In this document: positions 197 through 54,479 of the stretch, one piece after another
Numbering within the stretch: the stretch's first letter is position 1
Layout: every line of letters begins with the position of its first letter
NCBI GenBank assembly: GCA_012845835.1
Contig: JABAKD010000026.1
Location: forward strand, 13,484,379 to 13,548,378
Length of the DNA stretch: 64,000 bases
Direction: 5' to 3'
Origin: Undaria pinnatifida
Lineage: Eukaryota > Sar > Phaeophyceae > Laminariales > Alariaceae
Notes under the pieces: generated by a model
The model's input: the letters and a program-made list of their open reading frames with translations, nothing else
Database searches by the model: none
Told to the model about the DNA's origin: nothing
Translations under genes and position numbers: made by a program

Positions 197-205
197 AATA
201 CTATA

Positions 206-850
206 TAATATAGACTATATGATCGTTCTTTTTTTTTCGGGGATTCGGTCAGGAGTTATCTTCGTCTCGGCTTCTTCAGTATGCGATTCGCGGTACTGGA
301 ATTCTCGGCAAATAGCTTCGTTCGAGCGCCGTCTTCGCGGGGCGGCTCCAACGCCCATCGCCCTGCCGTATCCGTTTCGCGCTTTGACGTGAACGCGGAT
401 AGACGCTGAGCGGGACAATCGAGAAGTGCGCTTTTTTTGTATTTTGGGCGGTATACGCCCGAGCTATTTTTGGATCTTGGCACATGCAGAGGTTGAACGA
501 ATAAATAAAGGACAACATTTCCAATTTGGCGCTATTTCCAAATTGGAGTCATTTCCAAATTGGCATATAAATCCCTTCCTGACGATGCCTTTTTCATGGC
601 CGCCTCCAAACGCTTGCCCTATCGTACCTACTACTGCTGTGTGTCGTTTCCTTTCATTTCAGTGGATCTAATGCTATATAACCAACGAAGGATGTGTCGT
701 GAGTACGATTCTCACCCAGATCATACTTGGCATTCACGAGCGTACGCGCTGGAGACGTTATGGATGGTTATGATAGTTGTTAGTGTTCTCCTGAGTACTA
801 CTAACTGTGCAGTACGTGGAGAGGGGATAGCTCCGGACAGTGCGCATACA
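206..850 (+). repeat. Inverted-repeat block IR-A, left copy, with tRNA-like core
   Basis: About 640 bp match, on the opposite strand, 56,855-57,475: the AACGATCATATA edge, the CATCGCCCTG stretch, the AATAAATAAAGGACAAC stretch and the GGAGAGGGGATA end all pair up. At about 650-735 there is a tRNA-like piece with a T-arm-type hairpin (GTGAG, seven-base loop, CTCAC). This suggests a SINE-derived core. Three short TTTCCAAATTGG-type repeats lie at 520-565. No gene is recognised. The stretch 851-991 between this block and the LTR shows nothing recognisable. Confidence 0.75.
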
Positions 851-991
851 AAGTCGGTGATACTCTGCAACGAACGGATAAAGAGCTATTTTAGATACAC
901 TTACTCAAGTCTCGAATCCCTTGTCCCAACTCTCTCACCGCTTCTAGTTTGTCCTCCGTGTCTACCTTCAGGCTGATTTCTCCCGTCTGCT

Positions 992-1685: not shown

Positions 1686-2345
1686 TTACGGGGAACCGGA
1701 TTGCGAATGTCCGGTCCTCCTACCTTTCAGGATTTCACGTTCGTTGAGCTCCTCCCGGTCTCCGTCTGCGTACCGAACCCGCCAGTACGGTAACTTGTGG
1801 TCGAAGACATTTGAAAGATGATGCTTCTTGTTTCCTTCAGCGTCCGCGGGTTTCCTCCAGATCACGGTCCCCACGGGGTGTTGTTTCAACGCATGTTCGC
1901 GGTCGATTCCTTCTCTTTCCTTCTGCATTAGCGTCGAAGTCGGCCTTACCTGGCATTTCGCTCCGTAATACGTTTCCCACAGCGCATGGGAAACGTCCAG
2001 CTGTAAAGGGGTGAAACTGCCTTGTGCCTCCTCTTCGGACAGCCACTGCGACTGTGTGCCATCCACGAATCGTCCCTTGTATCGCCACTTCCAAGCGTTG
2101 CCTTGATCCATCACAGCCTTTCTGTCTATTAGGGTATACATAGGCGACGCTACAATCGACGGCTCCGCTAGTCCGAAGTCAACTCCCCATGCCAGGTGAG
2201 CAAATTCGTCTTCGAAGTCGTGACGAAGGTCGTCCGGACGTATGTGGAACGTCTTGATATTCGCCGCTGACACTCGGCGTCGGCGAATCCTTCGCCCATT
2301 CATCGTGACGATGTAGCTTAATCCTGGTAAGACAACTGCAGTCAC
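1686..2345 (-). pseudogene. Integrase C-terminus with chromodomain/Tudor-like tail
   Basis: This 220-codon open frame is the direct continuation of the integrase frame, cut from it only by an in-frame TAG at 2361-2363. It opens with a beta-rich stretch (VLPGLSYIVTMNGRRIRRR) like the GPY/F module that follows gypsy integrases. A chromodomain-like segment comes next (WKWRYKGRFVDGTQSQWLSE). Near the end, PYWRVRYADGDREELNEREI resembles Tudor-type repeats of the form YxDGDxEEL. In chromoviruses such tails are thought to steer integration towards marked chromatin; that role here is inferred. The frame ends in a stop and then the LTR region. Confidence 0.75.
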
Positions 2346-2360
2346 CTCCCAAGATCCGGT

Positions 2361-3898
2361 CTAGTGCTCGTGGGCTAGTTTATGATGTATCCCCTCCCTT
2401 GCCATCACAGACTCCGCCTTTTTCCCCAGCACCTTGTCTCTGACAACAACACGGGTTTCCACCAAGACCCGACCGAGTTCAGCATTCCGGCTCTCACCAC
2501 GTTTCTGTCTGTCTTCATGTTTTTTCGATAGAGCCATCCGTACATCCCGTACCTCCTTGTACGCTTGACGTTTGTCGGCCATGTAACTGTGCATCCCGCC
2601 TCTGAATTCACCACCATCTATCTCGGGGTGCGTAGCATCAAGTTGCGTGCGTGCACCACGACCGAAGAAAAGACGGAAGGGAGTTGGCTTCCCCGGTAAG
2701 CGCAGGTCCGGCGTGGTACGATGGACCCACAGTGCCGGCTGCATATACTCGTCCCATCTGCGAGGCCAAGTCTTGCACCGTTCTCCTAGTGCTTCGTGTA
2801 GCCACCCCCGCAGTCTCTCCATCGTCCCCTGTGCGCGTGGATGGTCGACAGACCCATATGCGATGGTCACGTTCAACCATTTGCATAAGCGTTGCATCAC
2901 CTCTGCCGTAAACTTGGATCCCGGAACACTGCGAACATACATCGGTAGCCCAAACGTATGCATCGTTTGGAGCGGTTCCTCGCTTCTCCGAGTGCTTCTT
3001 TCGTGGGGAGCGGGAAGGCGAAAAAGAACTTGCTGGCTGTGTCGAATGCCACCAGTAGAACTTTGTTGCCTGCGTCTGAATTCACGCCCATGCCCTGGAT
3101 GTCGACTTCGAGTACTTCCCCGGGTCGTAGAAACCTCGACGGTAGCATGGCAACCCGTTGACTCGCTGACCGCTTGCGACGTCTGCATCCACACGAGAGG
3201 ACGTAGTCTCTAACGTCCTTGATGAGGGTGAGCCAGCAGAACCAATTACTAATCAAGGCCGTAAATCTCGCCGTCCCCGGATGCCCATAGGTGCTGTGCG
3301 CAAGCGCCATAATCCCTGGAACGATAGATCGGGGAACTGCAAATCGTGGGATCTTTCCCCAAGGTGCTACCCACAAGAGGCCGTTATCATCCAACACATA
3401 TTCGCCACCTCCTGATCCTCGGTTTCCCGCTTCCTGGAGTTCTTTCCGAATCTTGCGCAGTACCATATCTTCGTACTGCCTCTGCATCAGCTGTGGTAAA
3501 TTCTGGAGAATAGCTGTCACCCTCTCCAGCATCAATGGCTGCGACCGCTGGGACCCCCTGGTCTCTTTCCCTGATCCGCTTGAACGGTTGCTGGTGTCCT
3601 TCGGTGGTTCCTCCAACGGATCACGTTGCCGTTTCGGTTTCGAGAGGAGCTCTCTCTGTCCCCTGCGTTTGCGTGGGCGGTCAACCTCCACTGGTGGCTC
3701 AGTAGTAGTGATTGCCTGCGCCGGTGCATTCTCCATCTCCTCCTCCTCAGGTGACGGCGGTTCAGCTGCCCAGACAACTTCCGGTTCCTCGGAAGTGGCC
3801 TTTGCCTGCGATCTCGTGACCGCTCTTGTCACCTCAAAGGCTTGCTGCGAGGTAACCCTCAAACACCATGCAGGCCAATCCTTCCAGTTCCACGACAT
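2361..3898 (-). pseudogene. Ty3/gypsy integrase (H2C2 zinc finger and DDE core), broken
   Basis: An acidic and basic linker (about 3,880-3,450) leads into an H2C2 zinc-binding region: HSTYGH, then CGC near 3,190. The first catalytic Asp lies in VLEVDIQGM. A frameshift near 2,990-3,000 moves the reading to the next frame, which carries FGLPMYVRSVPGSKF and the catalytic Glu in AQGTMERLRGW. The second catalytic Asp expected in the RS-D-PGS context is Val here, so the enzyme would be dead even if the frame were joined. The downstream part (TPFRLFFGR and on) is typical of gypsy integrase C-terminal regions. The frame ends at an in-frame TAG and continues into the chromodomain tail. Confidence 0.88.
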
Positions 3899-4835
3899 CT
3901 AGTACCGGTTTTCCCAGTAAGCCTTGAACAGCTAGTAACACTGCTCGTAGCATCGGAGAAGACGTGACATCTGCGATGATGTTTGCCGCTACGGTTTGCT
4001 GACCGTCTGCAGGATCACATGGCGTTCCTGCCTCGTTGTTGTCTTGGCGTAGTCGTTGAAGTGCAACTCTTTAGTTTCTTCCAGACGTGTCGCATCCGCT
4101 GGGTGTGCGATATACCCTTCGGTCGGCTTTGCTCCCATGATGTGAGCGCGGTTCAAAGAGATGATGGGTTCGCTGAACGAATATATCGCTCGCTCTCCGT
4201 TACCTCTCTTCAGGAAGTATGCGCCCCTTCGTCCCAGAAATTCCCCTAATTCCTGAACTGGTTGCTTTATCTTCTCCAACCTCCGCTTCCATACCCGGCT
4301 GACTTCCCTTTTGTTGCAAGGCCTCCCTTGATTCCTACCACAAATGTCCGTTTCCTCCTCCACGGAATCCATACTCGGCTCGCTAGTATCTCCGCTTTGT
4401 CCACGATGTATGACTCTCGTTCCAAAGCGGGGAGAATCTCGTCGTTCCATTCCGTCGTTCGCAGAAGGTTGCCAAAACATTCGAGTATGAAAACGCGTGC
4501 GTCTGAAGCGATGGCAGCTTGGGTTAGGCTACTCGCTCCGGATATTTCCGCCTTCTCCCGTATCCCTTCAAACCTCCTGCAGGCGTCACCGACCACCACG
4601 TCTGGTTTCACCTCTCTTGACATGGTTAGGCATTCCTGCGACCCTGTTGTCACCCTAAGTAGCTTCGCAACGTTGTCGAATCTGTTTGCTCTGATGCATT
4701 CCAGTACTATTCAGTCCTGGTCTACTGCTCCTCTGACCGTCAGCAATCCCTCTGATGCAAGGATGCAGCCTCCCCTCCCACAGTCGAGCATGACCACCCT
4801 AGAAGCTCCGGTGCGATGACAAGCTTGGCCTGTTG
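3895..4835 (-). pseudogene. Cytosine-C5 DNA methyltransferase-like domain inside the gypsy pol region
   Basis: Between RNase H and integrase lie about 300 codons spread over four frames that match the motif order of C5 methyltransferases. Motif I is seen as VMLDCGRGGC (near 4,790). Motif II/III is AVDQD plus IVLECIRANR. Motif IV is KPDVVVGDACRRFEGIREK (near 4,590), where PPCQ would be expected and the Cys is kept. Motif VI is RVFILECFGNLL in place of ENV. Motif VIII is WIPWRRKRTFVVGI in place of QRRRR. A target-recognition-like stretch follows (RAIYSFSEPIISLNRAHIMG, near 4,130). A motif X-like end in a further frame reads ADVTSSPMLRAVL (near 3,960). Stops and frameshifts inactivate it. Methyltransferase-bearing gypsy elements are known from dinoflagellates. 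The identification rests on motif order, not on a search. Confidence 0.7.
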
Positions 4836-5445
4836 AGTATCTGCCTCTGATGGCTCTGCGGGTGTGAGCGCCACGGCTGCAAGTACTGTAACACGTTGAG
4901 TACTAGATCCGTCCACATCTTTCAATCCTAGGGTTTCAAGGTGTACGCCGTCGAGCACTGGCCCCTGAGGTCCTTTGTAAACGTTTGGCAACGACTCGTC
5001 TCCTGGAAAAGAGTCGTCGAAATCTTCGATCACGATGCTCTTGTTCGGTACCCGCGACATGGCGCCTGGGAGATGATGTTGTGTCCCCGGCCTCCACTTC
5101 AAGGTTATGTCGTGCTCCATCAACCTCAGAGCCCAGCGGTGGTATTTCGGTGTGGGAGATTGGCTTTTGAAGCGACAAGTCAACACTGAACAGTCCGTGA
5201 TGAGGTCGCCCCCAAAGATAGGGTTGGAATTTTCTCACCACCCACATGACTGCCATGCATTCACGGTCTGTTGCTGACCTTGTGGAGCCTCCTCTCCACC
5301 ACTTTTTGCTGCCGTACGCGATCACCTTTTCCACTCCTGCGATGCATTGTGTTAGCACCGCTCCTGCTTCTATCTCACTGGCATCGGTGGACAGCGAGAA
5401 CGGTTCTGTCAACACCGGCAGGGCTAGAATTGGAGGTGACGTCAA
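4836..5445 (-). pseudogene. Gypsy RNase H domain, frameshifted
   Basis: The catalytic Asp is seen in LSTDASEIEAGAVLTQ, the YGSKKWW stretch follows, and the Glu lies in ATDRECMAVMWVVRKF. A frameshift near 5,190 passes to the frame with PKYHRWALRLMEHD and RPGTQHHLPGAMSRVP, the usual end of a Ty3/gypsy RNase H (canonically ...ADALSR). Its role would be to degrade the RNA strand during reverse transcription. A linker rich in acidic residues leads into the methyltransferase-like region. Confidence 0.85.
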
Positions 5446-5483
5446 AGCTTCGATAAGCTCATTAAAATCCTTGTTTTGCTCTT

Positions 5484-6513
5484 CTACCCACGGGACTTCT
5501 CTTTCTTCGCTCTCTTGGTTCTGAACCTTGGATCTCTCAGCAAGTCGGAAATGGGCGCCACCACTGTGCTGTACTGGGGTACGAATTGCCGTAAGTACCC
5601 TGTCATGCCGAGCAACCCTCGCACCTCCTTCACCGTGTTCGGCCTTGACAGCTGCGTGATAGCATAAATGTTGCTCGGGGCTGGCCTGGTACCAAGTCTA
5701 TCCACGATCATGCCGACGACCTCCATGACCGACTGACAGAAATGCAATTTCTGAACATTTACGGTTCAACGTCCTTGCCGTAGACACTCTAACGTTTCTC
5801 GCAGCAGTCCCCATTGATCTTCAAGGGTTTTCGACGGGATGGCGATGTCGTCCAACCAGCTCTTGATTTCCCCATCCTTGACGCTTACCAGTCGCCCTCT
5901 AACGTAGTTGGCAAACGCCGTAGGCACTGTTTTAAACCCGAAGCCGCAGCGAACGTATTCGTACAGCTTCCCGTCAGCGTCTCGAAATGCCGTCAGGTGT
6001 CGATTGTCCTCATGGATCTCGAGCTGTAAGAATCCTGAAGCTAAATCGATGCTGGAGACATACTTCGACCCTTCCATCTCGTCCATAATATGCTGCAAGT
6101 CTCCGAGTCCACCACTCTGAGATTTGAGAAGCGCATTGATACCTCGAAAATCCTGCACAACCCGCACTGTCTGTCCCATCTTTCTTGCGAAGCGTCGAAC
6201 AATTGGCGGCCCACTCGGAAGTTGATTCCCGAATGGATCCATTTTTCTTCAGGAGCTTCACCACCTCAGTCTGAATCATCTCGCGCTGTTCCAGGCTGTA
6301 GTGTGGAATGGGCGCCACGTATGGCTTGACGTTGGGATCTTTGAGCTCCAGTCGCATGGGCACTCCTTTGCACGCTGGTACGCTCTCGGGGTTGACCGCG
6401 AACACGTCGATGTACTCGTTGAGAACGCCCATCAATGTGTCCTTTTCGCTCGGACTGAGCTGTTCGAAGTTGGCCTCTCCCAGGTCCATCGTGGGGGCTT
6501 CGCTCGGAACCAC
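5484..6513 (-). pseudogene. Gypsy reverse transcriptase, frameshifted
   Basis: The N-terminal part (EYIDVFAVNPESVPACKG, IPHYSLEQREMI) is followed by a frameshift near 6,220 and then VRVVQDFRGINALL. Motif A is YVSSIDLASGFLQLEI with its Asp. The palm continues in FRDADGKLYEYVRCGFG, and the active-site box reads SWLDDIAIPS in place of the usual Y-x-DD. A second break near 5,760 leads to the thumb/connection piece (TVKEVRGLLGMTGYLRQFVP). This is a clear Ty3/gypsy RT, inactive because of at least two frameshifts. Confidence 0.93.
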
Positions 6514-6753: not shown

Positions 6754-7551
6754 TTACTGTGCCCCCCTTGGCACTCCTAGATCCACTCCTACTTTAAGAT
6801 CATAGCGTTTAGTTGATTCTACCACTACGAGCTGCTGTACTTGAGGTTGAGGGCCTTTGACAAAAGCGTCTACCTGGAGGCTGGTATCACCATGACCCTC
6901 AACGTCTTTCGCAATGCGTAGTTTCCAGTGCAAAGTGCCTTCGTCCTCCCAAACAGAGTTTCCTAACTTCATAATCCCCGCCGGGATCTTCGATTCCTCC
7001 AATTCTTCCGGTTCTTGCTCGTCCGTTGACGGTTTCACCGCGCAATAGTGGTCCCATTCGGCACACATCGCTCCTGCCGCGGCCTCTCCGACCTCCTTCG
7101 GGGCGAATGGTACCCACAATGAGGATGGTGTCGGCCGGAAACCCTCCTCACCATCGAAACTGATGATACGTCGATTGTCCGTCATGAACGCGGCTCCAAG
7201 CACCATCGCATACGGAAGTCCTTTCACCCCCCTGAACTTCACACAGAAGATTTGATCGACCGGTGCAAAGATTAGTGGCAGCAAGCACGAGCCTACCAAC
7301 TCCATCGGGGGTGCGGCGCTGTTCTTTGGGTTTGCTGCGCTGAGTAGGCCCTTTCCCGTTGGATTTATCAGCGGCTTTCCCCAATCATCCCGTTCTTCGA
7401 TGGATTCGATGCACTGCCGTGACACGTTGTTTCCTCTGCCCGCCCCAGTATCCACCAACACGGCAACCGGAAGTCGCCGGCTCGAGCTCGTTGCATGCCA
7501 CAATGTTGCATGAACCCAAACCTGTGACGTCTTAGTTTGCAGTGCTCCCAT
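6754..7551 (-). pseudogene. Retropepsin-like aspartic protease region of the gypsy element
   Basis: The open frame of about 266 codons carries the aspartic protease signature VAVLVDTGAGRGNNVS near its start and a flap/second-lobe-like stretch PYAMVLGAAFMTDNRRII, the order seen in retroviral-type proteases. The rest is an acidic linker (EQEPEELEESK) with no recognised domain. The frame is intact, but it is separated from the upstream Gln-rich region and from the RT by stops. The start is uncertain because it probably derives from a Gag-Pol polyprotein. Confidence 0.8.
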
Positions 7552-7839
7552 TTCCGATCGGTGAGAGGAACTCTCTGAACCCTGGCTGCTGTTGACCAGT
7601 GAACCCGGACTGCTTTTGGCCAGCGAACCCTAGCTGTTGTTGACCAGTGAACCCTGGCTGCTGTTGGCCAGTGAAATCTGACTGCTGTTGGCCAGCAAAC
7701 CCTGGCTGTTGTTGGCCAGCAAACCTTGACTGTTGTTGCTGCGGCGGCCTTGGCACCACCGGACGTCCCCATCGCGATCAAGGGTGCGGTTGTGCTCCTC
7801 TTGCGGTTGTCTGTGGACCCCATCGTCCTCCAATTTCAA
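7532..7839 (-). pseudogene. Gln-rich gag-like tail with 8-residue repeat
   Basis: About seven copies of a 24-bp unit (7,565-7,740) encode GQQQPGF(A/T) in one minus-strand frame. The repeat lies just before the protease, where a Gag C-terminus is expected. I see no CCHC zinc knuckle. A gag assignment is by position only. From 7,840 to 8,330 short open frames exist on the minus strand without recognisable domains and may be the remains of the gag core. Confidence 0.45.
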
Positions 7840-8330: not shown

Positions 8331-9385
8331 CGTCTAGAGAGACGAGTGGAGTCCAGGGGATCGATGGAGTCTAGTAACACCAAGTAGTCCTCACCAAACG
8401 GGTAGTGGCTTGGGACAAGGTGGGTGGGAAAAAGGGGTGGTGAAAGATACCGAGTACATGCATATTTACCTTTCTGGTTTGTTGAAAGTTGTCTCTTTAT
8501 CATAATATACATGCAACCCTTCGAAAGCTCTAGTCTTCAATAACAGAGTAACATATGGAATCCCTTAGAGGTATATAAGGCACAACAATGATTAATATTA
8601 ATGTATTCTTTACAAACCTCAAAATTCCAACGTACTTATCAAGCTTCCCCTTTATTATTACATTCTTTACAATCCTTGAGATTCCAACGTACTTGTCGAG
8701 CTTCCTCCCTTCCTATTCCAATAAGATAATGTCCCTAAACCATGTTTCTAATTCCGGTAAGTTCTTAGCATGACAAAGAGCAGCTATAGAAAGGCTTACA
8801 TTCCCCATACAGAATAAAAAACTAGAACCAGTTTGCAGTATCACTACTCATGAAACACCTGTGAGAGCGACCTTGCAGTGCCTGTACAACCTGCGAAGAC
8901 ACAAAATCCCCATCACAAAGGCCAAAAACAAATTGCCTGCAAAAAAAAACCTTTTCTTGTGGTCGTCTCACAGTATGCAACAAGTGTAGATCAACTAACA
9001 GACGCGAACTCATTTTCAACCTGTATGATGGACGCAAGCACGTTTCCACAGTGATTTATCACGTACGAACTTACTCGAAATCAGTAATGATGATCCTCCT
9101 TTCCCGATGTCCTATTTGTCTCGTTTCTTGAATCTACTTCCTACATTATATACAACTTAGTCAGCCCTTGCTATATGTTTCCAAAATTACCCAGCCCGTA
9201 GATTGCGATTTCGCGCAGTATAAAGACCAATCTGTGTACTATTCTGTACAAGGTACAACAAACATGTATCCCCAACAATAACGTATACATATAATACCCT
9301 AATCTATACTCACGACCGTGCACTGTTTTGACCATATATACAGCAGTAGTAGGTATCGTCTATGTATGAGCAGATTATAGTAAAC
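8331..9385. other. Intergenic, no gene recognised
   Basis: The stretch is AT-rich from about 8,500 on. The only structure I see is a 57-bp tandem duplication at 8,604-8,715 (ATTCTTTACAA ... CCAACGTACTT ... GAGCTTCC twice). No domain or RNA gene is recognised. Confidence 0.6.
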
Positions 9386-10065
9386 GCCCCACCTACTATC
9401 GAAATCTGCCAGAGTAATAAACACTTCCACGCCCTGGATATCGCCTCGTTATCGTTTCAGAGCCGCCCATGCCGCTGCTGCAATTCCCACCCACCCCCGT
9501 CCCCAACGCCCCCTCCTTGACCGAACACCCGCACCATCGCCTAGACCTAGCACCCCGCGTATAGCCAACCCCTACATCTATGCGACCTAAAGCCCTCCCC
9601 CCCCGCCCCCGCCCCCCCACGCGCCACATTCCCCCTCCCCCACAAGAAATATTTATAGTTTCCACGCCCAAATAGACCTGCCCCACCCATGCCCTTCCCC
9701 CCTTTCCCCCCCTCCCGCCCCACTTTTGATCAAAATCAGGCCCCCACATCCCTAAAAACTCCGCCCTCCTCTCACCGGATATTCGACTTACAGGATTGAC
9801 TTGATAAACTGATGCATTTCCTTCCACAGCTGTCAGATTGTGTCCCCCTCAGAAACAGGTTTTATAGTTTCCACGCACAGACTGCCTAACATCACCCTGT
9901 TGACCCTGGTAGCTACACTGTAGTTGCAAGGGGAGTCGCCGACCTATATCCTTAATGAGGACACACAACCCGTAACACGCGCGATCGGAGTATCACACAC
10001 AGCTTGCAAAGAAAGATGAGCTTTGACAAAATATTCGATCTCACAGATGGAGTGTATTAAAATTT
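9386..10065 (+). repeat. Dispersed repeat R1, copy 2
   Basis: The copy opens with the module GCCAGAGTAATAAACACTTCC, passes through C-rich tracts (9,480-9,720), the CCGCCCTCCTCTCACCGGATA stretch and GTCGCCGACCTATATCC, and ends with GATCTCACAGATGGAGTGTATT. It matches 16.73-17.39 kb on the same strand and 18.3-17.6 kb on the other. No protein is encoded that I can support. Confidence 0.85.
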
Positions 10066-10125
10066 CTGTAATATATCAAGTGCTCAAAGACGGCCCCACG
10101 TGGTAGCATGAGTGACCCAAGAAAT

Positions 10126-15857: not shown

Positions 15858-17370
15858 ATAGCCCCCCCTCCGATCCCTCTTGTTCAAACGCCCCACCAAA
15901 AATGAAAATCTACCAGAGTAGTAAACACTACCAGCCGGCTGGTATCATCTCATTATCCTTCTAGACATCCATGCCATAGCTCCAACTCATCTCTCCGCCA
16001 TTACCCCCCCCCCTCCCCCCGCGCTTTTGTTCCCGTCCAGTTCTTTCAAACGCCTCACTTACAATCGAAATCGGCCAGAGCAATAAACACATCTAAGCGA
16101 TTGATATCACGTCATTATCTTTCTAGCCATCCATGACGTAGCTTTCATTCATCCCGCCTCTCCCCTTACAACGCCCCCTCCTTCTCCACATCCCGCACGA
16201 TCACATAGACCCAGCATCGCCCGTATAGCAAGTCCCTACACATATGATTAATCCTTGATCTCATAGCTGACTGATTCTACGATAGCCCCCCCCCAAAACC
16301 AGCGGTTTTCTTTAACGAACGTTTCATGGCTGCTCGACACGAGGAAGGATGCTATGAAAAGAGTATCTGCATATATTATCTTGTTTGCGGAGGACTATCG
16401 AACGATGACGTCCGGGTGGTAAGGGGGACCGTATTTCAGGAGATACGGCCGGGAGTTGGTTTCAAAACCGGCGATTTCGTTAAAGAAAAGTTGGGGGGGC
16501 TACCGTAGAACCACACAGCTGGAGTGTATTACAACAATGTTTGTGACCTAAACCTCTTCAAAACCCTTTCCGACCCCCCCCCCCCCCCCCCTCGCCCCCC
16601 CCCCCCCCTCGCCTCCCCCCCCTCCCCCCCCCCCCCCTCCCCCCCCCCCCACCCCCCCCCCCCTCCCCCCCCCCATTTTTTTTCCTCGCTTTTTCTTGCT
16701 CAAACTCCCCACCTAATATTTGATATCAAAATCCGCCAGAGTAATAAACACTTCCATGCCCTAGACATCGCCTCATGATCTTTGTAGAGCCGTCCATGCC
16801 GCTCCGGCAATTCCCACCCCCCCCCGCCCCCAACGCCCTTCCTTCCCCACCACCCGCACCATCGCCCAGACCTAGCACCACGCGTATAGCAACCCCTACA
16901 TCTATCTATGCTACCTAAGGCCTCTCCCTCCCCCCCACCCCCTTTCCACCACATTCCCCCCCCCCCTTCCCCCACAAGGAGGATATATGGTTCCCACGCA
17001 CAAATTTTCCTGCCGCACCTGTCCTTCCCCCCCTCCCCCCCTCCCGCCCCCTCTTTGATTAAAATCAGCGCCCCACGTCCTTAAAAACTCCGCCCTCCCC
17101 TAGCCGGTTATTCGACTTACAGGATTCACTTGATAAACGGATGCATTTCCTTCCACGGCTGTCCAATTTTGTCCCCCTCAGAAACGGGTTTTATGGTTTC
17201 CGCGCACAGACTGCCTAACATCACCCTGTTGACCCTGATAGCCACACTGTAGTTGCGAGGGGTGTCGCCGACCTATATCCTTAATGAGGACACGCAACCC
17301 GTAATACGCGCGATCAGAGTATCGCACAGCTTGCAAAGATGAGTTTCGACAAAATATTCGATCTCACAGC
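15858..17370 (+). repeat. R1 copy 3, left arm of a giant palindrome
   Basis: Three related modules, each with a CCAGAGTAATAAACAC-type core (about 15,910, 16,075, 16,737), are followed by C-rich tracts and the common R1 end (17,190-17,370). The C-run block at 16,575-16,675 is almost pure cytosine. The arm is the mirror of 18,920-17,640. Confidence 0.85.
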
Positions 17371-17640
17371 TGGAGTGTATTTTAATTATTATTTAGTAAT
17401 AATTAAAATACAATCTTCGATCTCACAGCCGGAGTGTATTTTAGTTATTATTTATAAATAATTAAAATGGAGTGTATTTTAATTATTATTTATAAATAAT
17501 TAAAATACACTGTATAAATAATTATTACTAAATAATAATTAAAATACACTCCAGCTGTGAGATCGAAGATTTTGTCGAAACTCATCAGTGTATTTTAATT
17601 ATTACTAATTAAATGATAATAATTAAAATACACTCCAGCT
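17371..17640. repeat. AT-rich palindromic centre
   Basis: Nested inverted copies of TTTTAATTATTATTTA and its complement, with GAGTGTATT marks on either side, form the turning point between two head-on R1 copies. Such a structure could extrude as a cruciform. Confidence 0.85.
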
Positions 17641-18920
17641 GTGAGATCGAGAATTTTGTCGAAACTCATTTTTGCAAGCTGTGTGTGATACTCCGATCGC
17701 GCGTGTTACGGGTTGTGTGTCCTCATTAAGGATATAGGTCGGCGACTCCCCTTGCAACTACAGTGTAGCTATAAGGGTCAACAGGGTGATGTTTGGCAGT
17801 CTGTGCGCGGAAATTTTTTAAATCCCGTTTCTGAGGGGGACAAAATCTGACAGCTGTGGAAGGAAATGCATCAGTTTATCAAATGAATATTGTAAGTCGA
17901 ATATCCGGTGAGGGGAGGGCGGAGTTTTGAAGGACGTGGGGGCCTGATTTTGATCAAAAGGTGGGCGGGAGGGGGGGAGGCGTGGGAGGGGACGGGTGGG
18001 GCAGGTCAATTTGTGCGTGGAAACTATAAACATATCTTGTGGGGGAGAGGGGGGAATGTGGCGGGGGGGGCCGGATGCGGGGGGGGAGGGCTTTAGGTCG
18101 CATAGATGTAGGGGTTAGCTATACGCGTGGTGCTAGGTCTAGGCGATGGTGCGGGTAGTGGGGAAGGAGGGGGCGTTGGGGGCGGGGGTGGGTGGGAAAT
18201 GCAGCAGCAGCATGGACGGCTCTCAAACTTTAACGAGGCGATATCCAGGGCGCGGAAGTGTTTATTTCCCTGGCGGATTTCGATAGTAGGTGGGGCGTTT
18301 AAGCAGGAGGAAGCGAGGGAAGGCGGGGGAGGGGGGCGTTCAAGAGGTTTAGGTCACATATAATATTAAAATCAAGGATAAGGTCGACACTGATGCTCGC
18401 AACATTGTGTGATCCTCCGATCGCGCGTATTAATCATATATATGTAGGAGCCTGCTGTACGCGCGGTGCTGGGTCTAGGCGATCGTGCGGGGTGTGGGAA
18501 AGGAGGGGGCGTTGGAGGGGGACAGGGGGCATGAATGAAAGCTACGTCATGGATGGCTAGAAAGGTAATGACGTGATATCAATGGCTTATTAGTGTTTAT
18601 TACTCTGGCCGATTTCGATTGTAAGTGGGGCGTTTGAACGAACTGGGCGGGGAACACCAGGGGGGGGGGGGGGAGTTGGAGCTACGGCATGGATGGCTAG
18701 ATGGATGATGAGATGATATCAGCTGGCTGGTAGTGTTCACTACTCTGGCAGATTTTGATTTCAGGTGGTGCGTTTGAACAAGAGGGATCGGGGGGGGGGG
18801 GAGGGCGGGGAGCGAGCATTTCAATGTGCGCGCGGAAACTATAAACCCTTAAAGGGGAAGAATCTGACGGTTGCAGCAAGAAGACACCCCTTTTTATCAC
18901 CCGCCTGGTAATGTTTATTT
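17641..18920 (-). repeat. R1 copy 4, right arm of the palindrome
   Basis: Opposite-strand counterpart of 15,858-17,370. The R1 end is at 17,641-17,815, and G-rich tracts replace the C-rich ones. The module core recurs at about 18,260, 18,600, 18,740 and 18,905. No gene is recognised. Confidence 0.85.
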
Positions 18921-26700: not shown

Positions 26701-29700
26701 CCGTTGCCACAGGCTCACCTTCCATGATCGTGTGCGGTCCCGTTGCCGCTCACTCCCCCCCTTTCCCTTTGCGCGGCCCCTTTCTCTTTGCGCGACCCCT
26801 TTCTCCGCCTTTTCCCCGTCCTGGCCGTTCTCTGTCGTCGCCCCTCAGCCCCCTTTTCTTTGCCTCGTCGTTCCCCGTTCTGTGTGGCCCCTCTGCCGCG
26901 TTCTCCCCTCGTCTGGTCGTGTACGTCCCAGTTTCCGCACCCCCCCCCTCGTCCCCTTCTTGCGCGGTTCGTTGTCACATCTCCCCCTGCCGTGTCGTGT
27001 GCGGCCCCGTTGCCGCGTCCCCGCCCCCCCCTGGTCGTGTACGGCCACACTGCCGCACACCTCTTCCCCCTCCTTGCGCGGCCCCTTGCCGCGTCCCCCC
27101 CCCCCCGACCAGGTCGTGTACGGCCCCGCTGCCGCCGCCCCCTTCCTAGTTTATGCGGCCCCGTTTCGGCGTTCCTTCCCCCGCTTGGTCGTGTACGGCC
27201 CGATGCCGCACCCCCCCCCACCCCCTTTGTTTGCGCGGCCCCTTTTGCCGTCCCCCCCCCCGCCTGGTCGTGCATGACCCCGTTGTCGCACGCCTCTCCC
27301 CCCTTCTTGCGCGGCCCCATTGCCGCATCCCACCCCCGACAAGCTCGTGTACGGCCCCGTTGCCGCGCACCTCCCCCACTTCTTGCGCGTCTCCGTTGCC
27401 ACGCCCGTTGACCAGGTCATGAACGGCCCCGTTGCCGCATATATCCCCCCCTTTCTTGCGCGGCCCCGTTGTCACGTGCTACCCCCGACAAGGTCGTGTA
27501 TGGCCCCGCTGCCGCACACCTCTCCCTCCTTTTTACGCGGCCCTGTTGCTGCGTCCCCTCCCTGACCAGGTCGTGCGCCCCCCCCCCCGGCAAAGTCGTG
27601 AACGACCCCGTTGCCCCCCCCTCCCACCTCCCCCCCCCTGTTTGCGCGGTCCCCTTTCCGCGCCCCCCCCCAAGCCTGGTTGTGTACAGCCCCGTTACCG
27701 CACCCCCACCCCCCCTTTTTTTGTGCGGCCTCCTTGCCGCATTATCTTCCGTACCTGCTCGTGTACGACCCCGTTGTTGCACCCCCCTTCCCCCCCACGA
27801 TGCCACGTTCAAGCCCCCGGGCGGCTAATTCGTATACGACCCTGTTGCAGCCCCTACCCCCCCCCCCCCGGCCTCCCCCTTCTTTGCGCGGCCCCGTTGC
27901 CGCGTCCCCCCCCCCCCATCCTGGTGAAGTACGGCCACGCTGCCGCACATCCTTTCACCCATTCTTGCGCGGCCCCGCTGCCGCGTCCCAACCCCGACCA
28001 GGTCGTGTACAGTCCCGTTGCCGCCCCTTCCCCCCCCCCCCTAGGTTACGCGGCCCCGTTTCCGCGTTCCTTCCCCCGCTTTGTCGTGTACGGCCCGTTG
28101 CTCACCCCCCCCCCCCTCCTTTTGCTCGGCCCCGTTGCCGTGTCCCCACCCCACCTGTTCGTGCGTGACCCCGTTGTCGCACGCCTTCCCCTTTCTTGCA
28201 CGGCCCCGTTGCCGCATCCCACCCCGGACAAGGTCGTGTACGGCCCCGTTGCCGCACACCCCCCCTTCCTTGCACGGCCCCGTAGCCGCGCCCCCCGACC
28301 AGGTCGTGAACGGCCCCGTTGCCGCATCCCAACCCGGACAAGGTCGTGTACGGCCCCGTTGCCGCACACCCCGCCTTTCTTGCACGGCCCCGTTGCCGCA
28401 TCCTACCCCCGACAAGGTCGTGTACAGCCCCGTTGTCGCGCACCCCCCCTTTCTTGCGCGGCCCCGTGGCCGCGCCCCCTGACCAGGTCGTGAACGGCCC
28501 CGTTGCCGCATCCCACCCTGGACAAGGTCGTGTACGGCCCCGTTGCCGCAAACCCCCCCTTTCTTGCACGGCCCCGTAGCCGCGCCCCCCGACCAGGTCG
28601 TGAACGGCCCCGTTGCCGCATCCCACCCCGGACAAGGTCGTGTACGGCCCCGTTGCCGCACACCCCTCCTTCCTTGCACGGCACCGTTGCCGCATCCCAC
28701 CCCCGACAAGGTCGTGTACGGCCCCGTTGCCGCACACCCCCCCTTTCTTGCGCGGCCCCGTGGCCGCGCCCCCCCGACCAGGTCGTGAACGGCCCGTTGC
28801 CGCATCCCACCCCGGACAAGGTCGTGTACGGCCCCGTTGCCGCACACCCCCCCTTTCTTGCACGGCACCGTTGCCGCATCCCAACCCCGACAAGGTCGTG
28901 TACGGCCCCGTTGCCGCACACCCTCCCTTTCTTGCGCGGCCCCGTGGCCGCGCCCCCCGACCAGGTCGTGAACGGCCCCGTTGCCGCCCACCCCCCCCCC
29001 CTTTTTTCTCCCGCGCGGCCCCGTTGCCGCGTTCCCCTCCCCCTTGGTCGTGTACGGCCCCATCGCCGCCCATTCCCACCCCCTTTCATTTCGCGGCCCC
29101 GTTGCCGCGTTCCCCCCGGCCTGAACGTGCGCGACCCCATTGTCGCGCACCCCCCGTTTGTTTAAGCCCGCGGCCCCACCGCCGTCGCTCTGCGTGGCCC
29201 CGTTGCCACGTCCCCTCCCGGACTGATCGTCGTGTGCAGCCCCGTTGCTGCACACGCACACCCCCTTTATTTGCGCGGCCCCGTTGCCGCGCTTCACCCA
29301 GGCCGGGTCGTGTACGGTCCCGTTACCGCACACCACCCCCCACACGTTTTGCGTGGCACCTTTGCCTCGCACCCCCATTTGCTAAAACCCGCGGCCTGGC
29401 CGCCGTCGCCCTGCGCGGCCCCGTCGCCACGTTCGTTCCCTACCTGATTGTGTGCGGCCCCGTTGCCGCACACACACACCCGTTTTCTTTGCGCGGCCCC
29501 GTTGCCGTGCTCCCCCCCGGCCGGGTCGTGTACGGTCTCGTTGCAGTACACCCCCCCCCCCCCCTTTTCACGGCCCTTTCTCCGCGCACCCCCCCGTTTA
29601 TTAAAGCTCGCGGCCTGGCCGCCGTCGCTCCCCCCTTTTCCTAGTTCGGTACTTCTTATTCGCGGCCTTCCCGCCCCGATACCCCTAGCTTCTCCTTCCT

Positions 29701-31768: not shown

Positions 31769-32221
31769 TTATGCAGAAGGTGTATATCGGAGGGATGCGT
31801 AGTCAACGACAAATGATTCTTTATGATCTACATGACCTTGATTTGCTCCAGCTAAGATGCTGTCGTGGAAAGTGTTGAAACCTGATCCTGGGATAACGGT
31901 GTACAAATTGGTTGTGATGTGGGCAATAATATGTGCACGGACGATGTGATGTAAAGCTGGGTTGTTGTGCACACGACGCGAGATACATCTTAATAAACAT
32001 GCACCATCACCAATCTCGGGAATAATGGACCATTGACCAGAATTGTTATTGTTGCCGATGTTGTTGTCTTCATCATTTTCGCTGTCTGATGGGTTTGTAC
32101 TGCTGTCGCTGCTGTTACAGGAATCTTTGGTGTCAATTTGTTGTTTGTTTTCTGTGTCCAGCATTTTTCCCCGCGCGCTTATACCGATGTTTGTTGCCGA
32201 TATGGTCTGTTGTGTGCACAT
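31769..32221 (-). pseudogene. OTU-like cysteine protease fragment, terminal unit of copy 1
   Basis: The frame starts MCTQQTISATNIGIS, passes through an Asn/Ser/Asp-rich linker (SSDSSTNPSDSENDEDNNIG) and reaches the OTU catalytic loop GDGACLLRCISRRVHNN, where Asp and Cys fit the D-G-x-C of OTU deubiquitinases. The domain then jumps from ILAGANQ to VVDYASLRYTPSA. Compared with the terminal unit of copy 2, most of the C-terminal half and the catalytic His (FHY there, VDY here) are deleted. Confidence 0.7.
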
Positions 32222-32433
32222 CGTTACTTTTGCTTGAGTTGTGTTGCTATTTTATATCTCTTTATACAGGTTTCGCTACTGCTGTATGGTAACCACCGCC
32301 GTGTCAATTGTGAGGGAGAACTCACAGTAAACTTAGAGTCTATGGACTACGTGCTGCTTGCTGGTGATGCTGCTGACGGAACTTTGCAAGACAAACGGAA
32401 CTTTTTCGGGCACGTTGGCGTTGTTTGTTCCGT

Positions 32434-32871
32434 TCAGAAAAATATATTGTCTACACCGACAAATGATTCTTTATTATCTACATGACCTTGATTTGCTCCA
32501 GCTAAGATGCTGTCGTGGAAGGTGTTGAAACCTGATCCTGGGATAACGGTGTACAAATTGGTTGTGATGTGGGCAATAATATGTGCACGGACGATGTGAT
32601 GTAAAGCTGGGTTGTTGTGCACACGACGCGAGATACATCTTAATAAACATGCACCATCACCAATCTCGGGAATAATGGACCATTGACCAGAATTGTTATT
32701 GTTGCCGCTATTGTTGTCTTGATCATTTTTGCTGTCTGATGGGTTTGTACTGCTGTCGCTGCTGTTAGAGGAATCATTGGTGTCAATTTGTTGTTTGTTT
32801 TCTGTGTCCAGTATTTTTCCCCGCGTGCTTATACCGATGTTTGTTGCCGATATGGTCTGTTGTGTGCACAT
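32434..32871 (-). pseudogene. OTU-like fragment, second unit of copy 1
   Basis: Same N-terminus and catalytic-loop half (GDGACLLRCIS) as its neighbours, but it runs out after ILAGANQ into spacer sequence ending VGVDNIFF. It lacks the His-bearing half. The unit boundary at 32,484 repeats that at 31,838, with a period of 646 bp. A partial third unit head occurs at 33,195-33,345. Confidence 0.65.
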
Positions 32872-33019
32872 CGTTACTTTTGCTTGAGTTGTGTTGCTAC
32901 TTTATATCTCTTTATACAGGTTTCGCTACTGCTGTATGGTATCCACCGTGTCAATTGTGAGGGAGAACTCACAGTAAACTTAGAGTCTATGGACTACGTG
33001 CTGCTTGCTGGTGGTGCTC

Positions 33020-39239: not shown

Positions 39240-39852
39240 TGTGGTGTCTTTTTCTACTCCACCAAGTATTGAATCGAACAATTCGAATTGCTGCCCTGCC
39301 CTACCAGACGCATGGGTGTCGGTGTAAGCCGGCACCCATGCGGAACCCTTGTACCGTGATATTAACCCTCACATGCCACTGAAAAACAAGACATAAAATA
39401 AGTACATAGTCTATACTCTCAGTTATACGAGAATAGTACATACATCCTCGTACTATGTCCGTCCGCTCGCCATCGAAAGAAAAAAGGTTGGTGGGCGGAA
39501 GAAACCACGATTGATCTGGTCCAATGATCGACCGCAGTCCAGTTGTAAACAACAGCTCTGTCTGTTCGCGTGTTCTATCTATCTGCCAGCACAGTTCCGC
39601 GGGGTATCCACTTGGTATCTCCACGAGCACAATCGACCAAACAATGTCAGCTGCTGCTGTCAAATTTAGCTACGTACGTACTTCGCCACAAAAAAGTATG
39701 AACCATAACGCCGAATTCTCTCTATAAACAACAAACTCCATACTATTCTTATCGGTTCCCGATTCCTAAAAATAGTTCTCAATAGCAGATCCTGGGGACT
39801 GACTACCTAAAGACGGCATTGTGCTCGTAAAGGGTGTCAAGGTGTACATTTC
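39240..39852. other. Fragment of a foldback repeat, then unrecognised sequence
   Basis: 39,255-39,350 (CAAGTATTGAATCGAACAATTCGAA, GCTGCCCTGCCCTACC, GGCACCCATGCGGA) is related to the foldback element at 47.09 kb. Nothing is recognised from 39,380 to 39,852. Confidence 0.5.
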
Positions 39853-40180
39853 GATCAAAATCAGACCCCCATGTCCGTTAAAACTCCGCCCTCCCCTCAC
39901 CCGATATTCGACTTACAGGATTCACTTGATAATAATATAGTCTAATGCATTTCCTTTTACAGCTATCAGATTTTGTCCCCCTCAGAAACGGGCTTTATAG
40001 TTTCCACGCACAGACTGACTAACATCACCCTGTTGACCCTGATAGCTACACTGTAGTTGCAAGGGAAGTCGCCGACCTATATCCTTAATGAGGACACAGA
40101 ACCGTAATACGAGCGATCAGAGTATGACACACAGCTTGCAAAGATGAGTTTCGACAAAATTTTCGATCTTACAGCTGGAG
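39853..40180 (+). repeat. Dispersed repeat R1, copy 5 (5'-truncated)
   Basis: Begins within GATCAAAATCAGACCCCC and runs through CTCACCCGATATTCGAC and GTCGCCGACCTATATCC to CTTACAGCTGGAGTATATT. It directly precedes the LINE fragment, so the LINE, the R1 copy or both are truncated at the junction (40,181-40,216). Confidence 0.85.
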
Positions 40181-40216
40181 TATATTTTGATACTCTTATT
40201 ATACTCCGGAGTATTA

Positions 40217-49757: not shown

Positions 49758-50352
49758 TTATGCAGAAGGTGTATATCGGAGGGATGCGTAGTGGAAAGAA
49801 TGTGGATAATATAAGATATCACAGACATTTGGAGGAGGAGGGTTGGGATATTGCTGAGGCTCGGTGTGATAAGGTATTCGAAAGTCCACTCCGTATAATA
49901 ACTGCGTGGCAGCAATTAATTATACGTTTGTAGCATATGCGTAAGGCTGTGACATGAAGTGGAGATACTCTTCGACACTCGAATATGTAGTAGGTTGAGA
50001 TCCAGCGACTTCCACAAGTTCTTGATTTGCTCCAGCTAAGATGCTGTCGTGGAAGGTGTTGAAACCTGATCCTGGGATAACGGTGTACAAATTGGTTGTG
50101 ATGTGGGCAATAATATGTGCACGGACGATGTGATGTAAAGCTGGGTTGTTGTGCACACGACGCGAGATACATCTTAATAAACATGCACCATCACCATTCT
50201 CGGGAATAATGGACCATTGACCAGAATTGTTATTGTTGCCGCTGTTGTTGTCTTGATCATTTTCGCTGTGTGATGGGTTTGTACTGCTGTCGCTGCTGTT
50301 ACAGGAATCATTGGTGTCAATTTGTTGTGTGTTTTCTGTGTCCAGTATTTTT
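49758..50352 (-). pseudogene. OTU-like protease, terminal unit with the most complete C-terminus
   Basis: This unit has the linker (DTENTQQIDTNDSCNSSDSS), the catalytic loop GDGACLLRCISRRVHNN, then DSILAGANQELVEVAGSQ and SSVEEYLHFMSQPYAYATN. After an in-frame TAA at 49,920-49,922 it continues with LIAATQLLYGVDFRIPYH and, near the end, SFHYASLRYTPSA, where HY fits the catalytic His of OTU proteases. The frame ends in TAA at 49,758. It lacks its own MCTQQ start, being fused out of frame to the unit before it. It shows what the ancestral protein looked like; as it stands it is broken. Confidence 0.7.
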
Positions 50353-50737
50353 CTTGATTTGCTCCAGCTAAGATGCTGTCGTGGAAGGTGTTGAAACCTG
50401 ATCCTGGGATAACGGTGTACAAATTGGTTGTGATGTGGGCAATAATATGTGCACGGACGATGTGATGTAAAGCTGGGTTGTTGTGCACACGACGCGAGAT
50501 ATATCTTAATAAACATGCACCATCACCAATCTCGGGAATAATGGACCATTGACCAGAATTGTTATTGTTGCCGCTGTTGTTGTCTTCATCATTTTCGCTG
50601 TCTGATGGGTTTGTACTGCTGTCGCTGCTGTTACAGGAATCTTTGGTGTCAATTTGTTGTTTGTTTTCTGTGTCCAGCATTTTTCCCCGCGCGCTTATAC
50701 CGATGTTTGTTGCCGATATGGTCTGTTGTGTGCACAT
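50353..50737 (-). pseudogene. OTU-like fragment, unit 2 of the array
   Basis: Full N-terminus (MCTQQTISATNIGIS), linker and loop with Arg-Tyr-Ile (GDGACLLRYIS), cut after ILAGANQ and joined out of frame to the linker of the terminal unit. The pair 50,737-49,758 is thus a head-to-tail dimer. Confidence 0.65.
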
Positions 50738-50946
50738 CGTTACTTTTGCTTGAGTTGTGTTGCTACTTTATATCTCTTTATACAGGTTTCGCTACTGCTG
50801 TATGGTAACCACCGTGTCAATTGTGAGGGAGAACTCACAGTAAACTTAGAGTCTATGGACTACGTGCTGCTTGCTGGTGGTGCTGCTGACGGAACTTTGC
50901 AAGACAAACGGAACTTTTTCGGGCATGTTGGCGTTGTTTGTTCCGT

Positions 50947-51335
50947 TCAGAAAAATATATTGTCTACACCGACAAATGATTCTTTATTATCTACATGACC
51001 TTGATTTGCTCCAGCTAAAATGCTGTCGTGGAAGGTGTTGAAACCTGATCCTGGGATAACGGTGTACACATTGGTTGTGATGTGGGCAATAATATGTGCA
51101 CGGACGATGTGATGTAAAGCTGGGTTGTTGTGCACACGACGCGAGATACATTTTAATAAACATGCACCATCATCACCATTCTCGGGAATAATGGACCATT
51201 GACCAGAATTGTTATTGTTGCCGCTGTTGTTGTCTTGATCATTTTCGCTGTGTGATGGGTTTGTACTGCTGTCGCTGCTGTTACAGGAATCATTGGTGTC
51301 AATTTGTTGTGTGTTTTCTGTGTCCAGTATTTTTC
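50947..51335 (-). pseudogene. OTU-like fragment, unit 3
   Basis: Second half of another dimer: linker and loop with an extra Asp codon (GDDGACLLKCIS), ending in spacer with VGVDNIFF. It lacks the MCTQQ start and the His-bearing half. Confidence 0.65.
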
Positions 51336-51719
51336 TTGATTTGCTCCAGCTAAGATGCTGTCGTGGAAAGTGTTGAAACCTGATCCTGGGATAACGGTGT
51401 ACAAATTGGTTGTGATGTGGGCAATAATATGTGCACGGACGATGTGATGTAAAGCTGGGTTGTTGTGCACACGACGCGAGATACATCTTAATAAACATGC
51501 ACCATCACCAATCTCGGGAATAATGGACCATTGACCAGAATTGTTATTGTTGCCGCTGTTGTTGTCTTCATCATTTTCGCTGTCTGATGGGTTTGTACTG
51601 CTGTCGCTGCTGTTACAGGAATCTTTGGTGTCAATTTGTTGTTTGTTTTCTGTGTCCAGCATTTTTCCCCGCGCGCTTATACCGATGTTTGTTGCCGATA
51701 TGGTCTGTTGTGTGCACAT
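51336..51719 (-). pseudogene. OTU-like fragment, unit 4
   Basis: First half of the dimer 51,719-50,947, with MCTQQ start and GDGACLLRCIS. It is fused out of frame at 51,336 exactly as at 50,353, so the two dimers are a 983-bp higher-order repeat. Confidence 0.65.
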
Positions 51720-51928
51720 CGTTACTTTTGCTTGAGTTGTGCTGCTACTTTATATCTCTTTATACAGGTTTCGCTACTGCTGTATGGTAACCACCGTGTC
51801 AATTGTGAGGGAGAACTCACAGTAAACTTAGAGTCTATGGACTACGTGCTGCTTGCTGGTGGTGCTGCTGACGGAACTTTGCAAGACAAACGGAACTTTT
51901 TCGGGCATGTTGGCGTTGTTTGTTCCGT

Positions 51929-52366
51929 TCAGAAAAATATATTGTCTACACCGACAAATGATTCTTTATTATCTACATGACCTTGATTTGCTCCAGCTAA
52001 GATGCTGTCGTGGAAGGTGTTGAAACCTGATCCTGGGATAACGGTGTACAAATTGGTTGTGATGTGGGCAATAATATGTGCACGGACGATGTGATGTAAA
52101 GCTGGGTTGTTGTGCACACGACGCGAGATACATTTTAATAAACATGCACCATCACCATTCTCGGGAATAATGGACCATTGACCAGAATTGTTATTGTTGC
52201 CGCTGTTGTTGTCTTGATCATTTTCGCTGTCTGATGGGTTTGTACTGCTGTCGCTGCTGTTACAGGAATCTTTGGTGTCAATTTGTTGTTTGTTTTCTGT
52301 GTCCAGTATTTTTCCCCGCGTGCTTATACCGATGTTTGTTGCCGATATGGTCTGTTGTGTGCACAT
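51929..52366 (-). pseudogene. OTU-like fragment, unit 5
   Basis: Single unit with MCTQQTISATNIGISTRG start and NGDGACLLKCIS loop, ending in the VGVDNIFF spacer. It has the same protein as unit 7, which marks a 1,300-bp higher-order repeat. Confidence 0.65.
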
Positions 52367-52578
52367 CGTTACTTTTGCTTGAGTTGTGTTGCTACTTTAT
52401 ATCTCTTTATACAGGTTTCGCTACTGCTGTATGGTATGCACCGCCGTGTCAATTGTGAGGGAGAACTCACAGTAAACTTAGAGTCTATGGACTACGTGCT
52501 GCTTGCTGGTGGTGCTGCTGACGGAACTTTGCAAGACAAACGGAACTTTTTCGGGCATGTTGGCGTTGTTTGTTCCGT

Positions 52579-53019
52579 TCAGAAAAATATATTGTCTACA
52601 CCGACAAATGATTCTTTATTATCTACATGACCTTGATTTGCTCCAGCTAAAATGCTGTCGTGGAAGGTGTTGAAACCTGATCCTGGGATAACGGTGTACA
52701 AATTGGTTGTGATGTGGGCAATAATATGTGCACGGACGATGTGATGTAAAGCTGGGTTGTTGTGCACACGACGCGAGATACATTTAAATAAACATGCACC
52801 ATCATCACCATTCTCGGGAATAATGGACCATTGACCAGAATTGTTATTGTTGCCGCTGTTGTTGTCTTCATCATTTTCGCTGTCTGATGGGTTTGTACTG
52901 CTGTCGCTGCTGTTACAGGAATCTTTGGTGTCAATTTGTTGTTTGTTTTCTGTGTCCAGCATTTTTCCCCGCGCGCTTATACCGATGTTTGTTGCCGATA
53001 TGGTCTGTTGTGTGCACAT
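52579..53019 (-). pseudogene. OTU-like fragment, unit 6
   Basis: As unit 5 but with GDDGACLFKCIS; the extra Asp comes from an in-frame ATC triplet gain. Leu-to-Phe in the loop restores the more usual C-L-F order of OTU proteases. Confidence 0.65.
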
Positions 53020-54322: not shown

Positions 54323-54479
54323 CGTTACTTTTGCTTGAGTTGTGTTGCTACTTTATATCTCTTTATAATGGTTTCGCTACTGCTGTATGGTATGCACCGC
54401 CGTGTCAATTGTGAGGGAGAACTCACAGTAAACTTAGAGTCTATGGACTACGTGCTGCTTGCTGGTGGTGCTCTATTGT

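What the first reader, a model, noticed from the sequence alone, without database searches (positions are those of the whole stretch)
3895..4835. Cytosine DNA methyltransferase captured between RNase H and integrase of a gypsy element
Seen: the pol region holds about 300 extra codons with the C5-methyltransferase motif order (LDCGRGG, VVVGDAC, ILECF, RRKRTFVVGI, a FSEPIISLNRAHIMG stretch, SSPMLRAVL) in the same orientation as the element. Known: DNMT-bearing Ty3/gypsy elements are reported in dinoflagellates, and copia-type ones in charophytes. Inferred: this is a decayed relative, and the element may have methylated its own DNA to avoid or exploit host silencing. Its place between RNase H and integrase should be compared with known examples.
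Basis: partly seen in the sequence, partly recalled or inferred. Interest (0 to 1): 0.86.

Follow-up and report, generated by a model that had tools for sequence, protein, structure and literature searches.

The report
Methyltransferase relic inside algal retrotransposon
A jumping gene, probably from a brown alga, carries inside its replication protein a domain descended from the enzymes that put methyl marks on DNA, but with the enzyme's active site altered, which is unusual because brown algae are reported to have lost nearly all such enzymes.

The parts
6754..7629 (-). upstream pol region with DTGAG protease-like signature (part of the same polyprotein in relatives)
   Evidence: tblastn of P0084 (residues 10-196) to 7542-6982 at 50% identity; Pfam shows no protease family; the DTGAG signature is recalled
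5766..6248 (-). reverse transcriptase core
   Evidence: PF00078 E 1.5e-10; P0084 matches 6185-4860
5203..5490 (-). RNase H domain
   Evidence: PF17919 E 5.1e-26 and PF17917 5e-17 on piece 5697-4936
4803..5204 (-). end of RNase H plus linker that leads into the methyltransferase-like domain (frame -3)
   Evidence: tblastn of P0003 and P0004; in P0003 and P0004 this linker and the domain are one open frame
3843..4797 (-). C5-methyltransferase-derived domain, broken in this copy: frames -2, -1, -3
   Evidence: tblastn of P0001 in three frames; profile comparison; structure
4711..4713 (-). in-frame TGA inside the domain (relatives are open here)
4564..4599 (-). motif IV place (VVVGDACRRFEG): Pro of Pro-Cys absent in all members examined
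   Evidence: coordinates from the ungapped P0001 alignment
3338..3842 (-). linker between the domain and the integrase
   Evidence: open with both neighbours in P0016 and up to the start of H2C2 in P0013
3173..3337 (-). integrase H2C2 zinc-binding domain
   Evidence: PF17921 E 6.7e-10
2361..3127 (-). integrase core, in more than one frame
   Evidence: PF00665 weak (E 0.043); tblastn of P0107 residues 1117-1557 to 3047-1725
1731..1805 (-). Tudor-like C-terminal domain of Pol
   Evidence: PF21743 E 1.8e-4 (21.7 bits, below Pfam cut-off 27.2); also below cut-off in relatives P0107 and P0114

Best explanation
A Ty3/gypsy lineage with a Tudor-like tail captured a complete C5-cytosine DNA methyltransferase domain between RNase H and integrase, most likely once, before its present subfamilies split. 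Since then the domain has kept its fold, residues expected to bind SAM (motifs I and II) and the ENV glutamate, but lost the Pro-Cys catalytic motif. It therefore works, most likely, as a non-catalytic DNA- and/or SAM-binding module of the Pol protein, for instance holding cDNA or target DNA for the RNase H/integrase assembly alongside the Tudor reader. The window holds one dead copy. Shown: the domain, its origin, its place, its presence across deeply diverged relatives and the motif losses. Inferred: loss of activity, the binding role, the single capture, and the brown-algal host.
Against: The Cys is kept in the window's own subfamily and in 4 of 7 other members, so some lineages might still be active. 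No biochemical data. The model is least sure just where it matters: pLDDT 57-62 over residues 71-90, the motif IV loop, and under 50 for most of 180-259. The C-terminal half's profile match is marginal (19.1 against a best shuffle of 19.1). No DNA of relatives was available, so dN/dS was not measured. Seven divergent members give no PF00145 hit at E up to 1, and the first AlphaFold run failed (pLDDT 37). For a single capture: the tree program, scoring the short rows as lacking the domain, counts 5 changes and finds one change in 0% of bootstrap trees.
Confidence: 0.62

Rival explanations
1. An active cytosine methyltransferase with an altered motif IV (Ala-Cys instead of Pro-Cys) that methylates the element's cDNA, as proposed for DIRS elements.
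For: Cys kept in 24 of 29 subfamily members covering it and in 5 of 8 divergent members; ENV Glu, SAM-site residues and, in 7 of 8, the last motif VIII Arg kept; precedent in PMC5890265 (abstract and discussion).
Against: Pro lost in 8 of 8 and Cys in 3 of 8, including P0084, which groups next to the window's subfamily in the tree (91/93); Asn and Val of ENV lost in 8 of 8; no marked CpG depletion in the window; Ectocarpus, the nearest named host, is reported with negligible 5mC (PMC12477816, passages).
Confidence: 0.2
2. The methyltransferase fold now serves another SAM- or RNA-related task, for example primer or genomic RNA handling, or RNA methylation as guessed for SymbioLINE elements.
For: SAM-site residues invariant while motif IV drifts; place next to RNase H; the SymbioLINE RNA suggestion is in PMC5890265 (discussion).
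Against: No RNA-specific motif was tested; nothing here separates RNA from DNA binding.
Confidence: 0.12
3. The domain is a passive relic kept only because Pol must stay in frame.
For: The catalytic half is less conserved than RNase H in 21 of 21 pairs compared; gene models P0110 and P0115 lack most of it.
Against: 33 of 308 examined columns are invariant among the rows present, 12 of them with all 8 rows; apart from those gene models, no row of the bearing group was seen to run on past the place without the domain.
Confidence: 0.05
4. Chance resemblance or an assembly chimera of a host methyltransferase gene with a retroelement.
For: Weak single-sequence Pfam scores.
Against: 82 proteins over (one, P0050, is the window's own), fused open frames in P0003, P0004, P0008, P0013 and P0016, and deep relatives; structure match.
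Confidence: 0.01

Closest known systems
KnitGypsy-Dnmt3 of Klebsormidium nitens (PMC5890265)
   Same: C5-methyltransferase domain inside the Pol frame of a Gypsy element
   Different: That domain is reported Dnmt3-related with conserved key residues and Ka/Ks under 0.2; ours lacks the Pro-Cys motif and sits in a Tudor-tailed lineage whose nearest named host is a brown alga. Dnmt3 affinity of ours was not tested. The exact place in its Pol is in a figure not held here.
SymbioDIRS-Dnmt3 and SymbioLINE-Dnmt of Symbiodinium (PMC5890265)
   Same: Retrotransposons bearing C5-methyltransferase domains
   Different: DIRS and LINE elements, with a tyrosine recombinase or endonuclease, not an H2C2/rve integrase
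Gypsy-10_Ec32, Tudor-tailed Gypsy of Ectocarpus (PMC12477816)
   Same: Gypsy Pol with C-terminal Tudor domain in Ectocarpus and Tribonema; our nearest named Pol relatives are Ectocarpus sp. CCAP 1310/34
M.HhaI, DNMT1, DNMT2 (C5-methyltransferases)
   Same: Fold, and motif order I, II, IV, VI, VIII
   Different: Pro-Cys of motif IV absent or broken; Asn-Val of ENV absent
DNMT3L (recalled, no call)
   Same: A methyltransferase relative without catalysis kept for another role
   Different: Host gene that stimulates DNMT3; no retroelement

Membership tests
C5-cytosine DNA methyltransferase | fold of the catalytic domain | tested here: met
C5-cytosine DNA methyltransferase | SAM-site motif I (F-x-G-x-G-G) and motif II acid | tested here: met
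   G10 and D29-W30 invariant in 8 of 8; P0090 has LFCGGGG; the F itself is kept only in P0090
C5-cytosine DNA methyltransferase | catalytic Pro-Cys, motif IV | tested here: not met
   Pro 0 of 8, Cys 5 of 8 divergent members; the 11 phage comparators all have both
C5-cytosine DNA methyltransferase | ENV motif VI | tested here: inconclusive
   Glu 8 of 8, Asn and Val 0 of 8
C5-cytosine DNA methyltransferase | motif VIII Q-x-R-x-R | tested here: inconclusive
   Last Arg in 7 of 8 (Lys in P0084), first Arg in 2 of 8, Gln in 0 of 8
C5-cytosine DNA methyltransferase | motifs IX-X in the C-terminal part | tested here: inconclusive
   Colinear match at the motif X place, but only as good as the best of 60 shuffles
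C5-cytosine DNA methyltransferase | methyl transfer to cytosine | not testable with these tools
   Needs an assay
Ty3/gypsy element | RT, RNase H, then H2C2/rve integrase in this order | tested here: met
Ty3/gypsy element | flanking long terminal repeats | tested here: inconclusive
   No pair unique to this element. A dispersed repeat flanks it (1-206 and 9868-10076, 83.5%), but other copies in the window are closer to each
Tudor-tailed Gypsy lineage of brown algae | C-terminal Tudor domain | tested here: inconclusive
   PF21743 E 1.8e-4, below the cut-off; likewise in P0107 and P0114; precomputed in P0093, P0094, P0096 and P0103
DNMT-bearing retrotransposons of PMC5890265 | conserved key catalytic residues | tested here: not met
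   Motif IV not conserved
DNMT-bearing retrotransposons of PMC5890265 | purifying selection on the domain | not tested
   No DNA of relatives was available
Dnmt3 family | groups with Dnmt3 in a tree | not tested
   No eukaryotic DNMT reference set on hand; no DNMT3 chain in the 50 listed rows, which excludes nothing

The most novel reading that the evidence does not exclude
Brown algae, reported to have lost all DNA methyltransferases but DNMT2, still carry a widespread methyltransferase descendant inside a Tudor-tailed gypsy lineage. It is hidden below Pfam's cut-off and has been converted into a pseudo-methyltransferase that Pol needs for a step other than methylation: the first writer-turned-non-writer known in a retrotransposon.
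Probability: 0.42. Interest if true: 0.85.

Novelty: new variant of a known kind. Interest (0 to 1): 0.72.

Why it matters
DNMT-bearing retrotransposons were reported from two lineages (PMC5890265), and the question has been what the enzyme does for the element. A third, independent-looking capture in which the catalytic motif decayed while fold and SAM site persisted suggests the domain can be useful without methylating. If the host is a brown alga, it also adds to the report that these algae hold no DNA methyltransferase homologue beyond DNMT2 (PMC13076208, passages), and shows that Pfam cut-offs miss such a domain. It gives a testable system: do Pol complexes need the domain, and does it bind SAM or DNA?

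Tried and rejected
Single ORF pieces against Pfam: PF00145 only below cut-off. Of 10 relatives, PF00145 appeared at E up to 1 in 5; of 7 divergent polyproteins, in 0. PDB by sequence: no methyltransferase. First AlphaFold job: failed, pLDDT 37. IMG/VR and GTDB contigs: no relatives for P0001 or P0018. Phages by tblastn with P0001: 43 records at E up to 10, the 15 listed all at E 1 or weaker; 6 of those 15 are annotated as methylase or methyltransferase, and most are copies of one phage gene. LTRs: the repeat at 1-206 and 9868-10076 was considered and rejected as an LTR pair because other copies are closer. Other ORFs of the window: 10 tested, none with a Pfam family above cut-off. The own genome could not be searched. 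Of 13 phage methyltransferase loci fetched, 11 proteins were used (one short and one cut gene left out). From the domain alignment, P0091, P0110 and P0115 (fragments) were left out of the comparison and the counts. Literature for a methyltransferase domain in brown-algal Gypsy Pol: searches; I saw none that reports one, but saw mostly listings and abstract starts, and passages of the papers named here. PMC12477816 reports a ParB/N4- or N6-type methyltransferase in a Sola DNA transposon, a different thing. PMC6916402 (passages) reports only DNMT2-like genes in Saccharina japonica.

Full report
What is there. On the minus strand, from about 7.6 kb down to 1.7 kb, lies a broken Ty3/gypsy element: a DTGAG protease-like region, reverse transcriptase (PF00078, E 1.5e-10), RNase H (PF17919, E 5.1e-26), a 320-codon extra domain at 4797-3843, an integrase with H2C2 (PF17921, E 6.7e-10) and core (tblastn of P0107), and a Tudor-like end (PF21743, E 1.8e-4, below Pfam's cut-off). 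The extra domain is spread over frames -2, -1 and -3 and holds one in-frame TGA. No LTR pair could be shown.

Relatives. A search with the domain, X at its breaks, found 42 proteins, 67-85% identical to the query; a profile search found 81, one of them the window's own. All listed belong to this one family, none is a distant methyltransferase, and nearly all carry only the source label ENA. Several hold the domain in one open frame with its neighbours: RNase H plus at least part of the domain (P0008, P0018; P0003 and P0004 from the end of RNase H), and the end of the domain plus linker plus H2C2 (P0016; P0013 reaches the start of H2C2). The place between RNase H and integrase is therefore that of open relatives, not an artefact of this copy.

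Is it a methyltransferase? Single-sequence evidence is weak: best PF00145 E 1.5e-4, 21.8 bits against a cut-off of 22, in P0001; 5 of 10 relatives match at E up to 1. NCBIfam dcm 0.0023; PHROG methyltransferase 4e-4. Profile against profile it is strong. Against 11 phage C5-methyltransferases the family scores 56.6, P 2.9e-7, aligned over residues 5-165 with motifs I, II, IV, VI and VIII in order; 60 column shuffles reach at most 22.3 and the reversed profile 18.0. The C-terminal half alone scores 19.1, at the motif X place, equal to the best of 60 shuffles, so that half is not settled.

Deep relatives. A search with RT and RNase H pieces for long proteins gave 104. Five are named Ectocarpus sp. 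CCAP 1310/34, with E from 3.7e-122 to 1.3e-57; the next protein named with an organism is from an insect at E 4.2e-47. The domain's profile finds 10 of the 104 with domain E under 1e-5: nearly whole in P0090, P0102, P0107 and P0114; the N-terminal half or more in P0084, P0108 (Ectocarpus) and P0139; a tail in P0110 and P0115; a start in P0091. P0107 runs RT-RNase H-domain-H2C2-integrase-Tudor in one frame. Pfam shows PF00145 in 0 of 7 of these at E up to 1, which may be why it has been missed. The 7 divergent members alone, without the window's subfamily, still score 52.2 against the phage enzymes (100 shuffles at most 23.8); with four subfamily members 60.7 (at most 26.5; reversed 20.8).

One capture? 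In a tree of 52 RNase H segments, the 10 rows labelled as bearing the domain (P0101 by hand for its visible start; P0110 with a tail only; P0139, P0115 and P0008 had no usable segment) lie within one group of 15 (support 86/81). The group's 5 other rows, and P0088 just outside it, have up to 140 residues after RNase H and stop short of the domain's place or look frame-shifted before it; P0109, the longest, reaches the place but looks frame-shifted, judged by eye. Scored as lacking the domain, they make the program count 5 changes, with one change in 0% of bootstrap trees. The sister group of 14 rows shows no domain; in the 8 of its members where the script located H2C2, RNase H and H2C2 are 242-310 residues apart, against 660 in P0107. 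A single capture is the simplest reading, not a shown one. P0110 and P0115 lack most of the domain, but they are gene models and may be mis-spliced.

Does it methylate? Motif IV in the 8 divergent members (P0001, P0090, P0102, P0107, P0114, P0084, P0108, P0139) reads GDAC, CNIA, GNAC, GNAC, GNVC, GNTS, DNAC and ANVG. Pro is present in 0 of 8 and Cys in 5 of 8; the 11 phage enzymes all have Pro-Cys. In the window's subfamily the Pro place is Ala in 28 of 29 and Thr in 1, and Cys stands in 24 of 29; the ENV Glu stands in 21 of 25. G10, D29, W30, E107, P146 and F153 are invariant in all 8; the last Arg of motif VIII is kept in 7 of 8, the first in 2 of 8; Asn-Val of ENV is lost in all 8. The catalytic half is 30-55% identical between members, RNase H 51-75% (higher in 21 of 21 pairs), the domain's C-terminal part 34-53% (higher in 12 of 15 pairs). 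In a working enzyme I would expect the catalytic half to be the better kept (recalled expectation). I therefore think the domain no longer methylates but still binds SAM and/or DNA as part of Pol (0.62). An active variant stays possible (0.2), mainly because the Cys is common. CpG is not clearly depleted (o/e 0.92 in the window, 0.95 in the element, 0.99 in the domain), which fits a genome without 5mC but does not prove it.

Host. Not established: the own-genome search did not complete. The nearest named relatives are Ectocarpus, and a Tudor-tailed Gypsy is described from Ectocarpus and Tribonema (PMC12477816, passages), so a brown alga or close ochrophyte is likely. There the finding gains weight: PMC13076208 (passages) reports complete absence of DNMT1, DNMT3 and DNMT5 across brown algae, with DNMT1 only in the close relative Schizocladia, and PMC12477816 reports negligible 5mC in Ectocarpus.

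Known or new. The kind is known; the lineage, the Tudor partner and the altered catalytic motif are new as far as the searches show.

Noticed in passing
window 9382-10064, with copies at 16702-17387, 17621-18301 (inverted), 39849-40186, 62642-63571 (in pieces) and 1-206: A dispersed repeat of about 680 bases, 72-90% alike between pieces, in both orientations; not an LTR pair of this element.
   Followed up: partly
window 198-862 and 57485-56824: Another dispersed repeat of about 660 bases, 81% alike, the first copy lying downstream of the element's Tudor-like end.
   Followed up: no
window 31772-32901 and 49822-54352: Very similar ORFs of about 155-200 codons repeated several times (tandem array at 50019-50685 with a 332-base period, 97% matches); the one tested has no Pfam family above cut-off.
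   Followed up: no
window 27001-29117: GC-rich minisatellite with periods of 74-294 bases that leaves long open frames on both strands.
   Followed up: no
window 7576-7738: 24-base in-frame repeat coding for a glutamine-rich stretch upstream of the protease-like region of the element.
   Followed up: no
window 61836-62312: Tandem array, 119-base period, 4 copies, 93% matches.
   Followed up: no
protein P0077: A relative in which the domain is joined directly to the integrase core, apparently by internal deletion.
   Followed up: no
proteins P0110 and P0115: EukProt gene models of this lineage that lack most of the domain but keep its tail; either mis-spliced models or true deletions.
   Followed up: no
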